Source of the DNA: Alphaproteobacteria bacterium
Lineage (GTDB): Bacteria; Pseudomonadota; Alphaproteobacteria; Rhodobacterales; Rhodobacteraceae
Length of the DNA: 64,000 nt
Direction of reading: 5' to 3'
NCBI GenBank assembly: GCA_030427405.1
Contig: JAUHXK010000007.1
Span: 186,001-250,000 of the forward strand
How positions within the stretch are numbered: the first letter of the stretch is position 1; each line of letters starts with the position of its first letter. Position numbers and translations under genes: made by a program. The notes beneath the pieces were generated by a model. It was not told the DNA's origin and did not search any database. It saw only the letters and a list, made by a program, of their open reading frames with translations. This document shows positions 28,467-31,766 of the stretch, one piece after another.

Positions 28467-29498
28467 ATGAAAGACCTTGAGCATGGAACCAGGGACAAAC
28501 GCGGGAACTGGACGCCGCACAAGCTGGCGGAACCCGCCCCGATCTGGCATCGCCCCTTTAGCCCGTCCAAAGTGCTGGCCTGGGTTCCCGAATACCTATG
28601 GCCGTGGAACGCGTTTCACCTTGCCACGGCTTTGCTGTGGGTTCTGGTTCTGATCCCAAGCTGGGACAGCCTCGCGACCCTGTCGCTGGGAAATTACGCC
28701 TACCTGTACTGCCTGAACGCCGTGGGCATGTTCCTGTTTCTGGGCAGTTTCGAGTTTTTCTTCTACGTCAAGCGCAAGCAGGAAAACCGTTACAAATACA
28801 ATGGCAAGTTCCCCGCCGATCACCCGTCTGACGTCTTCTGGTTCAAAAGCCAGAATATTGACAACTTCCTTCGGTCGTTTCTGATCACCATCCCGCTGTG
28901 GACCGTGGTCGAGATCGTGATGCTGTGGGCCTATGCCAACACCTGGGCGACCTGGTTGCCGTGGTCGACCCATTGGCTCTGGCTGAGCTTTATCGTCCTG
29001 ATCGCACCGGCCGTGCATGAAGTGTATTTCTTCTGTCTGCACCGGGCGATCCACTGGCCGCCGCTTTACAAACATATCCACTCGGTCCACCACAACTCGA
29101 TCAATCCCAGCCCGTGGTCCTCGCTGAGCATGCATCCCGGCGAAGGCTTTCCCTATATGGCCGAGGCGTGGTTGCACCTGCTGATCCCCTCGAACCCGGT
29201 ATGCGCCTATTTCACGTTGCATTCTGTGGGATTCGGCGCCGTGAACGGGCATTTGGGCTTTGAGAAGTTCGAGCTGACCGAAAACACCATGCTCGATAGC
29301 CACGCCTACACTCACTACCTGCACCACAAGTATTTCGAGGTGAACTATGGCGGTGATGGTCTGGTGCCCCTCGATAAGCTGTTTGGCACCTGGCATGACG
29401 GCTCGAAAGAAGCAGACGAGCAGATGAAAGCGCGTTTCCGCAAGAAGAAAGAGCGCCTGAAAAGCAAACGCGCTCAGGCATCCTCGGCTGCTGGCTGA
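28467..29498 (+). CDS. Sterol desaturase / fatty acid hydroxylase superfamily membrane protein
   Basis: Histidine boxes HRAIH, HSVHHNS, HYLHHKYFEVNYGG plus TM segments. Confidence 0.9.
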   Translation: MKDLEHGTRDKRGNWTPHKLAEPAPIWHRPFSPSKVLAWVPEYLWPWNAFHLATALLWVLVLIPSWDSLATLSLGNYAYLYCLNAVGMFLFLGSFEFFFYVKRKQENRYKYNGKFPADHPSDVFWFKSQNIDNFLRSFLITIPLWTVVEIVMLWAYANTWATWLPWSTHWLWLSFIVLIAPAVHEVYFFCLHRAIHWPPLYKHIHSVHHNSINPSPWSSLSMHPGEGFPYMAEAWLHLLIPSNPVCAYFTLHSVGFGAVNGHLGFEKFELTENTMLDSHAYTHYLHHKYFEVNYGGDGLVPLDKLFGTWHDGSKEADEQMKARFRKKKERLKSKRAQASSAAG

Positions 29499-29565
29499 CC
29501 GAAAAAACAACCAACCCGACCGTGACCCTGGCAGGCGATGACACCTGCCACAACAGGAGAGAACT

Positions 29566-29877
29566 ATGGCTGAATGGATCGACGCCTGCGCAGCAGATGA
29601 TATCGACGAAGAAGAGGTTATCCGCTTTGACCACGGGGCCCGCACATTCATCATCGTGCGGGATCACCAGGATAATTATTACTGTACCGACGGGCTGTGC
29701 ACCCATGAAGAGGTGCATCTGAGCGAGGGGCTGGTCGTCGAGGCGACGATCGAATGCCCCAAGCACGCCTCGATCTTCGACTGCACAACCGGCGAGGTGG
29801 AAACGCCGCCCGCCTGCGACAACCTACATACCTATTCCACCAAGGTCGAAGGTGGCCGCGTCTACGTGGAAATCTGA
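29566..29877 (+). CDS. Rieske-type [2Fe-2S] ferredoxin (MocE-like)
   Basis: 'CTDGLCTHEEVHLSEGLVVEATIECPKHASIFDCTTGEVETPPA' Rieske C-x-H / C-x-x-H motifs. Confidence 0.9.
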   Translation: MAEWIDACAADDIDEEEVIRFDHGARTFIIVRDHQDNYYCTDGLCTHEEVHLSEGLVVEATIECPKHASIFDCTTGEVETPPACDNLHTYSTKVEGGRVYVEI

Positions 29878-29906
29878 CACAGCTGCGCAGCAAAAGGACC
29901 GACCCA

Positions 29907-30725
29907 ATGTATCACAACCGCCCTCATGTCGAGGATATTCGCGCCATGAAACAGCGTGGCGAAAAGATCTCGATGCTGTTTGTCACCACGCCCGAGGAGG
30001 CCGCGGCCGCTGCAGCCGCAGGCATCCACATGCTGTCGATTGAAGGGCGTTTTTTCGATGCTGAAATGCGCGAGGCCGCTGGCGATTGCTTTGTGCAGGT
30101 CGGCTTGCCCTATGGCGGCTGGGGCCGGTTCGAAGGACGCGCGATTGCAACCGCCGAGGACTATTTGCGGGCCGCATTTCACTATGCCGGAATTGGCGGC
30201 GACGCGTATTATTGCGCGGCGTCCTACGATATTCAGAAGGTTCTGTGTGACAATCATTTGCCGGTGGTCGGTCATATCGGTCTGATCCCCAGTTACATCA
30301 CATGGACGGGGTGGCGCGCCGTCGGCAAAACAGCCGAAGAGGCGCAGGCGCTATGGCGGCACACCCAAAAGCTGCAAGAGATTGGCGTATTTGCGGCCGA
30401 GCTTGAGGTCGTGCCAGATCGGGTCGCCAGGTTCCTGACGGAAAACTCGTCTTTGATCATGCTTGGGATGGGGGCGGGGGAACATGCGGATGCCCAGTAC
30501 CTGTTTACCGAAGACGTCTGCGGTTACGGCCGGAACCACAAACCGCGTCACGGCAAGCAATACCGCAATTTCGCGCCCGAATTCGAACGCTTGCAGAATG
30601 AAAGGATCGCCGCATTCCGCGAGTTCAAGGCCGATGTTGATGCAGGCCTATATCCCGGCAAAGAACACTCGGTGGAGATTACGAGTGCAGAGTTCAGCGC
30701 ATTCCAAAAGTCGGTCGGGTGCTGA
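29907..30725 (+). CDS. PanB-like (ketopantoate hydroxymethyltransferase superfamily) protein, divergent
   Basis: 'LPVVGHIGLIPSYITWTGWRAVGKTAEEAQ', 'AELEVVPDRVARFLTENSSLIMLGMGAGEHADAQYLFTEDVCG', 'YPGKEHSVEI' match PanB C-terminal motifs; several PanB active-site residues not conserved. Confidence 0.7.
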   Translation: MYHNRPHVEDIRAMKQRGEKISMLFVTTPEEAAAAAAAGIHMLSIEGRFFDAEMREAAGDCFVQVGLPYGGWGRFEGRAIATAEDYLRAAFHYAGIGGDAYYCAASYDIQKVLCDNHLPVVGHIGLIPSYITWTGWRAVGKTAEEAQALWRHTQKLQEIGVFAAELEVVPDRVARFLTENSSLIMLGMGAGEHADAQYLFTEDVCGYGRNHKPRHGKQYRNFAPEFERLQNERIAAFREFKADVDAGLYPGKEHSVEITSAEFSAFQKSVGC

Positions 30726-30728
30726 TCG

Positions 30729-31766
30729 ATGCTGAGGATCGGATTGGTCGGGTACGGAACCGGTGGGCAGCATTTCCATGCACCGTTCATTGACGCTGCC
30801 GGTGGCTGTTCTCTGGCAGGTATCGTGGCGCGCGCGCCGGCAACAATCGCAAAGGCGCGGGCCGATTGGCCGGGCATTCCGGTTTTTCCAAGCCTGACGG
30901 CCATGATCACGTCGGGTGCGTGCGATGCCGTGACCATCACAACGCCACCGCACACCCGCAAGGGGTTGGTGCTTGAAGCCATTGCTGCCCGGTTGCACGT
31001 GATCGCCGACAAACCGTTCGCGCCAGACTGTGACGCGGCAATGCAGCTTGATGCTGCGGCAAAGGCCGCGGGTGTTGTGCTGGGTGTTTACCAAAACAGA
31101 CGTTTCGATGCCGATCTTCAGACGCTGCGCAAAGTCATTTCGGACGGCCGTGTAGGAAAGGTCTGGCGCATACATTCACGTATGGACCAGGACAGCCCCC
31201 AGACGCTTGAGGCTGGTCCGGGCGGAGGGTTGTTGCGGGATCTTGGATCGCATGTTGTCGACCAGATGATTTTTCTGCTGGGGCCCGTTGTCGCGGTGAC
31301 CGCCACAATGGACATGGTCGACCTGCCCGAGGGCCCTACGGATGCTTGCTTCACCTTGATGTTAAAGCATGAAAATGGTGCGCACAGTCATTTGTCGGCA
31401 TCCAAGCTCAACCATGTCGATATGCGCGAATTGCGGGTCTATGGGGACAGGGGGAGCTATTTTTCCCGGGCGACGGATATTCAAGCTCAGGACATCTTCG
31501 CGGGCAAGAGACCTGCGGACGATCCTGCCGGTTGGGGATACGAGCCCGAACTCAATTGGGGCAGGCTATATACCTCTGCGGGTCCCGAGATTGTTCCGTC
31601 AGAGCAGGGGCGCTATCACGACTATTACGAGGCTTTTGCCCGTGCGGTCCATGACGGCACGGCACCGCCCGTAACGGCTGAAGTGGGGGCTGAAACGCTG
31701 GCGGTTCTGGATGCGGCACGCCAAAGCGCGGCGAACGGAAGAACAGTGCTGGTCCGCGCGGCATAA
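30729..31766 (+). CDS. Gfo/Idh/MocA-family oxidoreductase
   Basis: 'LRIGLVGYGTGGQHFHAPFI' Rossmann, 'VIADKPFAPD' (K-P), 'YQNRRFDADLQTLRKVI'. Confidence 0.92.
   Translation: MLRIGLVGYGTGGQHFHAPFIDAAGGCSLAGIVARAPATIAKARADWPGIPVFPSLTAMITSGACDAVTITTPPHTRKGLVLEAIAARLHVIADKPFAPDCDAAMQLDAAAKAAGVVLGVYQNRRFDADLQTLRKVISDGRVGKVWRIHSRMDQDSPQTLEAGPGGGLLRDLGSHVVDQMIFLLGPVVAVTATMDMVDLPEGPTDACFTLMLKHENGAHSHLSASKLNHVDMRELRVYGDRGSYFSRATDIQAQDIFAGKRPADDPAGWGYEPELNWGRLYTSAGPEIVPSEQGRYHDYYEAFARAVHDGTAPPVTAEVGAETLAVLDAARQSAANGRTVLVRAA

What the first reader, a model, noticed from the sequence alone, without database searches (positions are those of the whole stretch)
28467..31766. Four-gene oxygenase/C1-like module: membrane His-box hydroxylase, MocE-type Rieske ferredoxin, PanB-like protein, Gfo/Idh dehydrogenase
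Seen: four co-directional genes sit between two LacI paralogs and just upstream of an inositol-type ABC/iol operon. Established: in rhizopine catabolism (mocDEF of S. meliloti), an oxygenase plus Rieske ferredoxin acts on a methylated inosamine. The sterol desaturase/fatty acid hydroxylase superfamily is a diiron His-box family that needs an electron donor. Inference: this may be a pathway that oxidises or O-demethylates a methylated inositol or related cyclitol, with the PanB-like protein handling a C1 unit or an aldol-type step. No ferredoxin reductase is visible in the window, so the donor chain is incomplete here.
Basis: partly seen in the sequence, partly recalled or inferred. Interest (0 to 1): 0.8.

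Follow-up and report, generated by a model that had tools for sequence, protein, structure and literature searches.

The report
Methylated-inositol demethylation operon with PanB-like protein
This is a bacterial gene cluster that probably takes up plant- or alga-derived methylated inositols, strips off the methyl group with a membrane iron oxygenase and feeds the sugar-like ring into inositol breakdown; it carries a widely misannotated relative of a vitamin-B5 enzyme that probably deals with the removed carbon.

Summary
The four genes are real, intact and co-directional. They code for a PF04116 His-box hydroxylase, a MocE-family Rieske ferredoxin, a PanB-like protein and a YvaA/YdgJ-type Gfo/Idh dehydrogenase. 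The neighbourhood is strongly conserved. In 66 loci found through the PanB-like gene, the ferredoxin is present in 62, a CUT2-type ABC transporter in 53-57, and the hydroxylase or a MocD-type FA desaturase in nearly all loci whose operon is not cut off. In 298 genomes of the same family, 13 of 16 with the close PanB-like gene also have the hydroxylase (expected 1.9, p about 6e-11), mostly in one operon. Relatives add what the window lacks: a ferredoxin reductase between ferredoxin and PanB-like gene, plus FolD and PurU, which point to a one-carbon unit on tetrahydrofolate.

It works like rhizopine mocDEF, with another oxygenase family and a PanB-like partner. That partner is not PanB: none of 83 relatives keeps PanB's metal or substrate residues, all keep the catalytic Glu and His, and the true panB-panC lies elsewhere. 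I propose it handles the released C1. No substrate or reaction is shown. Novelty: new variant of a known kind.

The parts
27279..28307 (-). LacI-family regulator (paralog a), divergent from the hydroxylase gene
   Evidence: PF00356 + PF13407; LacI divergent from the oxygenase gene is conserved in relatives
28318..28325 (-). candidate operator half-site TGATGCGA in the LacI/hydroxylase intergenic region
   Evidence: TGA(T/G/A)(A/G)CGA recurs in most of 50 LacI-oxygenase/SBP intergenic regions; post hoc motif, no binding evidence
28467..29498 (+). membrane di-iron His-box hydroxylase (PF04116), proposed O-demethylating oxygenase
   Evidence: PF04116 67.5 bits; histidines of the His boxes invariant in relatives (H192, H196, H205, H208, H209, H283, H286, H287, H310); only weak Foldseek match to Scs7p
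29566..29877 (+). MocE-family Rieske [2Fe-2S] ferredoxin, proposed electron donor
   Evidence: TIGR02377 above cut-off; found in the neighbourhood of the PanB-like gene in 62 of 66 loci
29907..30725 (+). PanB-like protein (KPHMT fold, lacks PanB metal/substrate residues), proposed C1 handling enzyme
   Evidence: PF02548; model pLDDT 89.5 matches PanB structures, TM about 0.7; active-site comparison
30729..31766 (+). Gfo/Idh/MocA dehydrogenase, YvaA/YdgJ type
   Evidence: PRK11579 168 bits; best solved relative B. subtilis YvaA 3gdo
31791..32819 (-). LacI-family regulator (paralog b), divergent from the ABC operon
   Evidence: PF00356 + PF13407
32857..32864 (+). candidate operator half-site TGATACGA in the LacI/SBP intergenic region
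   Evidence: post hoc motif
33267..34226 (+). CUT2-type periplasmic binding protein (rhizopine/inositol SBP-like)
   Evidence: NF052284 158.6 bits, cut-off 420; closest solved 4ru1
34174..35358 (+). ABC permease (ORF start; true start may lie downstream)
   Evidence: PF02653
35370..36194 (+). ABC ATPase
   Evidence: PF00005
36290..37315 (+). Gfo/Idh dehydrogenase, inositol 2-/D-chiro-inositol dehydrogenase type
   Evidence: NF052679 264 bits, cut-off 540; solved relatives 3ec7, 3mz0
37312..38271 (+). xylose isomerase-like TIM-barrel protein (IolE-like)
   Evidence: PF01261; weak TIGR04379
38276..39049 (+). xylose isomerase-like TIM-barrel epimerase/isomerase
   Evidence: PF01261; hydroxypyruvate-isomerase-like; in 47 of 66 PanB-like loci
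39073..40068 (+). inositol 2-dehydrogenase (IolG)
   Evidence: homologs annotated iolG in relatives
40061..41965 (+). 5-dehydro-2-deoxygluconokinase, fused type (IolC)
   Evidence: homolog annotated iolC in Marivivens

Best explanation
The block is the oxidative front end of a methylated-inositol catabolic operon. An O-methylated cyclitol (for example pinitol or ononitol) enters through the CUT2-type ABC transporter. The membrane di-iron hydroxylase, fed with electrons by the MocE-type Rieske ferredoxin and an FAD ferredoxin reductase, hydroxylates the O-methyl carbon. The hemiacetal breaks into the free inositol and a C1 unit. The PanB-like protein, which has the PanB fold but not its metal or ketoacid site, carries or speeds the transfer of that C1 (formaldehyde or hydroxymethyl) to tetrahydrofolate. 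FolD and PurU, or FolD and Fhs in this genome, then take it to formate. The Gfo/Idh dehydrogenases and TIM-barrel isomerases turn the freed inositol into inosose, which enters IolC/D/E/B. Shown: gene identities, conserved synteny, oxygenase interchange, loss of PanB residues. Inferred: substrate, demethylation, and the PanB-like reaction.
For: Synteny in Rhodobacterales and Rhizobiales with inositol ABC, dehydrogenases and iol genes. Ferredoxin near PanB-like in 62/66 loci. Genome-level association hydroxylase/PanB-like 13 of 16, p about 6e-11; 11 of the 13 lie on one contig within 6.3 kb and one more spans the origin of a circular plasmid. The hydroxylase and the MocD-type desaturase (PF00487) exchange in front of the same ferredoxin and PanB-like gene. 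Ferredoxin reductase in 27/66 loci, PurU in 16, FolD in 6 (profiles). PanB-like also pairs with a sterol-desaturase-type hydroxylase outside inositol operons, which ties it to the oxygenase rather than to inositol. PF04116 precedent: alkylglycerol monooxygenase hydroxylates the ether carbon to a hemiacetal (PMC3617469). Pinitol is the main component of Mimosa root exudate, and R. mesoamericanum mocDEF homologs are induced by that exudate (PMC5789663). G000 has iolD, FolD and Fhs.
Against: No substrate, growth or enzyme data. A close hydroxylase-ferredoxin-reductase operon without PanB-like exists in S. meliloti pSymA, P. yeei and Shinella, so PanB-like is not always needed. Formaldehyde and tetrahydrofolate also condense spontaneously (PMC8879981), so an enzyme is not strictly required. 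PurU is absent from this genome and present in a minority of loci. No ferredoxin reductase lies in the window; the best candidate in the genome is only 39% identical and unlinked. Some distant PanB-like proteins show no oxygenase nearby (L098, L099, L101).
Confidence: 0.6

Rival explanations
1. Ring oxidation or another non-demethylating hydroxylation of a cyclitol: the hydroxylase oxidises the ring or a side group, and the PanB-like protein is a metal-free lyase or isomerase acting on the oxidised cyclitol; FolD and PurU neighbours serve general folate balance.
For: PanB-like has lost all PanB metal and ketoacid residues, so its chemistry may be unrelated to C1; several operons lack FolD and PurU; closely related oxygenase operons lack PanB-like.
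Against: PurU and FolD recur beside PanB-like in separate lineages; the exchangeable MocD oxygenase belongs to the catabolic system of a methylated cyclitol (PMC10107442, PMC3538637).
Confidence: 0.17
2. C-methyl cyclitol route: the hydroxylase converts a C-methyl inositol (such as laminitol or mytilitol, marine compounds by my own knowledge) to a hydroxymethyl compound, a dehydrogenase makes the neighbouring ketone, and PanB-like performs a PanB-like retro-aldol that releases the hydroxymethyl group to tetrahydrofolate.
For: Would use PanB's aldol logic and the conserved Glu (E181 of PanB, 83 of 83); the dehydrogenase sits right after PanB-like here; many hosts are marine by their names.
Against: The same module is common in soil and plant-associated Rhizobiaceae, where O-methylinositols are the expected cyclitols; the metal ligands that activate the ketone in PanB are absent. 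No literature on bacterial laminitol or mytilitol use was found.
Confidence: 0.1
3. Substrate is not a cyclitol: the oxygenase demethylates another methylated osmolyte (betaine or methylated sugar), and the iol genes are neighbours only.
For: PanB-like plus sterol-desaturase-type oxygenase also occurs beside a ProX betaine-binding protein and a proline racemase in M. amorphae, and in non-iol contexts in Bradyrhizobium and Alisedimentitalea.
Against: Those belong to a separate PanB-like subfamily. In the window's own clade the inositol dehydrogenases, IolG and IolC lie in the same operon again and again.
Confidence: 0.08
4. Lipid modification: the PF04116 protein hydroxylates a membrane lipid or hopanoid and its position is incidental.
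For: Pfam name; most characterised PF04116 members act on lipids (family knowledge).
Against: Operonic with a sugar ABC transporter, LacI regulator and inositol dehydrogenases across Rhodobacterales and Rhizobiales; interchangeable with MocD-type oxygenase; absent from most genomes of the family (present in 36 of 298), unlike a housekeeping lipid enzyme.
Confidence: 0.04

Closest known systems
Rhizopine catabolism genes mocDEF/mocABCR (S. meliloti L5-30, R. leguminosarum)
   Same: Membrane oxygenase + MocE-type Rieske ferredoxin + ferredoxin reductase (in relatives), next to inositol-type SBP, Gfo/Idh dehydrogenase and TIM-barrel protein, feeding inositol catabolism. S. meliloti 1021 SM_b20817-20820 (LacI, mocD, mocE, mocF; PMC11387232) is followed by a PanB-like gene.
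   Different: Oxygenase is PF04116 rather than the PF00487 type annotated mocD; a PanB-like protein, not named in the moc descriptions I could read, is present; LacI regulators flank the block instead of MocR; no ferredoxin reductase in the window; SBP far below the rhizopine model cut-off.
Alkylglycerol monooxygenase (AGMO, PF04116)
   Same: His-box di-iron membrane enzyme of the same Pfam family that cleaves an alkyl ether by hydroxylating the carbon next to oxygen (PMC3617469).
   Different: AGMO uses tetrahydrobiopterin and lipid ethers; here a Rieske ferredoxin is the likely donor and the substrate is probably a small polar cyclitol.
Ketopantoate hydroxymethyltransferase PanB
   Same: Fold (TM about 0.7), C-terminal two thirds of the sequence, catalytic Glu181 and His136.
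   Different: D45 loop deleted; D84, K112 and E114 replaced in all 83 relatives; true panB lies next to panC elsewhere in the genome (L003).
H4F-linked formaldehyde oxidation (FolD, PurU or Fhs)
   Same: FolD and PurU in several of the operons; FolD and Fhs in this genome.
   Different: [quoted passage not shown] here a PanB-like protein is the proposed extra component.

Membership tests
Rhizopine (moc) catabolic system | MocE-family ferredoxin | tested here: met
   TIGR02377 145.7 bits, cut-off 136
Rhizopine (moc) catabolic system | MocD-type oxygenase (PF00487) | tested here: not met
   Window has PF04116 instead; PF00487 type replaces it in related loci
Rhizopine (moc) catabolic system | MocF ferredoxin reductase in the cluster | tested here: not met
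   Absent in the window; present in Tropicimonas L004/L005 and 27 of 66 loci
Rhizopine (moc) catabolic system | Rhizopine-binding protein MocB | tested here: not met
   SBP 158.6 bits against NF052284, cut-off 420
Rhizopine (moc) catabolic system | MocR-type regulator | tested here: not met
   The regulators flanking the block are LacI type; no MocR profile search was run on the rest of the window
Rhizopine (moc) catabolic system | growth on 3-O-methyl-scyllo-inosamine | not testable with these tools
   needs culture
FA_hydroxylase superfamily (PF04116) | profile match above cut-off | tested here: met
   67.5 bits, cut-off 31
FA_hydroxylase superfamily (PF04116) | conserved His boxes | tested here: met
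   His residues of the boxes invariant in 35 sequences and conserved in 47
FA_hydroxylase superfamily (PF04116) | fold of a solved member | tested here: inconclusive
   Scs7p found but with E above 3 and TM about 0.3
PanB (ketopantoate hydroxymethyltransferase) | equivalog profile | tested here: not met
   88.3 bits against TIGR00222, cut-off 207.6
PanB (ketopantoate hydroxymethyltransferase) | Mg ligands and substrate residues (D45, D84, K112, E114) | tested here: not met
   0 of 83 relatives
PanB (ketopantoate hydroxymethyltransferase) | PanB fold | tested here: met
   Foldseek top 28 hits all PanB
Inositol catabolism (iol) | IolG, IolC, IolD, IolE, IolB in the genome | tested here: met
   IolG and IolC in the window; IolD on C18 by search, with ORFs resembling IolE and IolB next to it, judged by eye only

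The most novel reading that the evidence does not exclude
A large, misannotated subfamily of PanB-fold proteins without PanB's metal site is a dedicated partner of oxidative demethylases of several unrelated oxygenase families (PF04116, MocD-type PF00487, possibly PhyH), capturing the released methyl carbon directly onto tetrahydrofolate: an enzyme for a step thought to run spontaneously.
Probability: 0.35. Interest if true: 0.75.

Novelty: new variant of a known kind. Interest (0 to 1): 0.6.

Why it matters
Methylated inositols are abundant in plants; pinitol was the most concentrated component of Mimosa root exudate (PMC5789663). I found no paper among those searched that gives bacterial genes for removing their methyl group outside the rhizopine model. 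The conserved operon gives a testable gene set in cultured strains. It would also correct the name of many proteins now called 3-methyl-2-oxobutanoate hydroxymethyltransferase, and could reveal an enzymatic formaldehyde-to-folate step coupled to demethylases.

Tried and rejected

Rhizopine SBP model as a marker of true moc clusters: the two genomes over its cut-off carry it in ordinary iol operons without mocDEF within the 19 kb read, so whether genuine moc clusters contain PanB-like could not be tested.

Palindromic LacI operator: none convincing at either window promoter; only a half-site motif is shared.

PurU in the own genome: only a short partial match, PurN-like by its length, so that branch does not apply here as such.

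Hydroxylase fold search: model good (pLDDT 85) but no significant structural hit. PDB sequence search for the hydroxylase: none. PADLOC: none.

Literature on PanB-like with moc genes, on methylinositol demethylation genes, and on laminitol or mytilitol use by bacteria: nothing found. The library is open-access only.

Considered and set aside: lipid hydroxylase; pantothenate biosynthesis (true panB-panC found elsewhere in the genome).
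Full report
Observation. The four genes exist as described: hydroxylase 28467-29498 (PF04116), MocE-family ferredoxin 29566-29877 (TIGR02377 above cut-off), PanB-like 29907-30725 (PF02548, far below the panB equivalog cut-off), Gfo/Idh 30729-31766. All are on the + strand, with gaps of 67, 29 and 3 bases, so a single transcript is plausible (inference). Two LacI paralogs on the - strand flank the block. 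Downstream on the + strand lie SBP, permease, ATPase, a second Gfo/Idh dehydrogenase of the inositol/D-chiro-inositol type (solved relatives 3ec7 and 3mz0), two PF01261 TIM-barrel proteins, IolG and fused IolC. The first dehydrogenase is closest to B. subtilis YvaA among solved structures; that YvaA is the scyllo-inositol dehydrogenase IolW is my own knowledge.

Conservation. A scan of one genome per species with the PanB-like protein gave 62 loci in Rhodobacterales, Rhizobiales and a few others. With annotated plasmid loci, 66 were compared: MocE ferredoxin 62, ABC genes 53-57, hydroxylase 48, TIM-barrel epimerase 47, second Gfo/Idh 38, IolG 36, FAD ferredoxin reductase 27, first Gfo/Idh 26, PurU 16, MocD-type FA desaturase 14, IolC 11, IolD 8, FolD 6. 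Several operons are cut by contig ends, so these are lower bounds. These loci were chosen by the PanB-like gene, so I also made an unselected test: 298 genomes of the same family, 297 genera. The close PanB-like gene (at least 62% identity) is in 16 genomes and the hydroxylase in 36; 13 genomes have both, against 1.9 expected (hypergeometric p about 6e-11, which ignores shared ancestry). In 11 of the 13 they lie on one contig and strand, 29 to 6232 bases apart; in the genome matching N. shimadae they span the origin of a circular plasmid; in the last they lie on different contigs of a fragmented assembly. The only other genome listed from the window's genus has neither gene, so the cluster is accessory.

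What relatives add. In Tropicimonas (L004, L005; 80-90% identical genes) a ferredoxin reductase sits exactly between ferredoxin and PanB-like gene; in the window only 29 bases separate them. The best reductase elsewhere in the genome is 39% identical and unlinked (C7:250180). N. shimadae carries SBP-permease-ATPase-MocE-TIM-reductase-PanB-like-FolD-PurU-IolG in one row (profiles). Marivivens and Aestuarium have LacI-FA desaturase-MocE-PanB-like, then epimerase, ABC, iolG, iolC and iolD, with iolE and iolB also seen in Marivivens JLT3646. R. etli CIAT 652 has LacI-mocD-mocE-mocF-'ketopantoate hydroxymethyltransferase'. S. meliloti 1021 SM_b20817-20820 are annotated LacI, mocD, mocE, mocF (PMC11387232), and a PanB-like gene follows directly in the matching pSymB stretch.

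Oxygenase interchange. Two different membrane oxygenase families, PF04116 and the MocD-type PF00487, stand in front of the same ferredoxin and PanB-like gene. A tree of 84 proteins (83 PanB-like and the true PanB) shows that the partner changes several times (FADes at least 5 changes on well-supported branches). Some operons hold both, as expected if different oxygenases open different methylinositols for one shared pathway (inference). A second PanB-like subfamily pairs with sterol-desaturase-type oxygenases in other settings in Bradyrhizobium, Mesorhizobium, Alisedimentitalea and Phaeobacter. A small AT-rich genome (31% GC in the stretch read, 1.41 Mb) has PanB-like next to a MocD-type oxygenase. 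So PanB-like tracks the oxygenase more than the inositol genes. Counter-examples: LacI-hydroxylase-MocE-reductase operons without PanB-like in S. meliloti pSymA, P. yeei and Shinella, and some distant PanB-like genes without a nearby oxygenase (L098, L099, L101).

The PanB-like protein. AlphaFold model pLDDT 89.5, pTM 0.82. The best 28 Foldseek hits are all PanB, TM 0.61-0.68 by query length and 0.66-0.73 by target length. Measured against the genome's true PanB (next to panC, L003), in 83 PanB-like proteins the D45 loop is deleted, D84 is Gly, Ala or Ser (one gap), K112 is Tyr in 77, E114 is mostly Ala or Ser; H136 and E181 are kept in all 83. The roles of these residues in PanB are from general knowledge of the enzyme. 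So it is not PanB, and the common database name is very likely wrong. What it does is inferred: FolD and PurU beside it, the PanB relationship (a hydroxymethyl/tetrahydrofolate enzyme) and its partnership with presumed demethylases point to C1 transfer to folate. [quoted passage not shown]

Mechanism. PF04116 includes alkylglycerol monooxygenase, which hydroxylates the carbon next to an ether oxygen and yields an unstable hemiacetal (PMC3617469). This is the same chemistry that O-demethylation of a methylinositol needs. The conserved histidines of the His boxes are present. This genome holds iolD on C18 with ORFs resembling iolE and iolB next to it, and FolD and Fhs side by side on C15, so both the ring and the C1 have outlets. 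PurU is absent here.

Independent hints. Pinitol was the most concentrated component (145 uM) of Mimosa pudica root exudate, and R. mesoamericanum up-regulated mocDEF homologs, a mocB-like ABC operon and iol genes on that exudate (PMC5789663); the authors read this as rhizopine use, but pinitol fits as well (inference). In rhizobia, LacI-type FixV homologs are divergent from mocDEF and close to PF01261 epimerases, read as catabolism of an inositol derivative (PMC3538637). Both LacI-divergent promoters in the window carry a TGATNCGA site that recurs in most related intergenic regions; this is a post hoc motif.

Known and new. It works like mocDEF but does not meet several defining features of the rhizopine system. 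New here: the PF04116 variant, the conserved PanB-like partner with altered active site, the folate genes in the same operons, and the survey that ties them together. I found no paper describing this combination, in an open-access library only. Confidence: methylated-cyclitol operon about 0.8; oxidative O-demethylation by the hydroxylase about 0.65; PanB-like as C1-to-folate enzyme about 0.4.

Noticed in passing
L087:9231-10076 (own genome, contig C7): A second PanB-like paralog (32-35% identical) sits in a sugar ABC operon with a PhyH-type Fe/2OG dioxygenase, a PfkB kinase and an RbsD/FucU protein, again a PanB-like protein beside an oxygenase.
   Followed up: partly
L096:7202-8973: A 1.41 Mb, AT-rich alphaproteobacterial genome (possibly SAR11-like) has a PanB-like gene directly beside a MocD-type oxygenase gene, without an iol context in the 15 kb read.
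   Followed up: partly
L119:8001-11626, L120:8001-12502, L121:8001-12468: A related operon LacI-hydroxylase-MocE-SBP-ferredoxin reductase-epimerase without PanB-like in P. yeei and Shinella; in S. meliloti pSymA the SBP and epimerase are not in the gene table. No function known to me.
   Followed up: partly
L122, L123: The only two genomes over the cut-off of NCBIfam NF052284 (rhizopine SBP) carry it in ordinary iol operons without mocDEF nearby, so the model may name inositol-binding proteins in general.
   Followed up: partly
L091:4188-16210: In Mesorhizobium amorphae a PanB-like/hydroxylase/2Fe-2S/reductase set lies beside ProX, mandelate-racemase-like and proline-racemase genes, suggesting a betaine-type substrate for that subfamily.
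   Followed up: no
window 23910-27168: TAXI-type TRAP transporter (binding protein and fused permease) directly upstream of the LacI/hydroxylase region; in locus L043 TRAP and TAXI genes also lie near the PanB-like gene.
   Followed up: no
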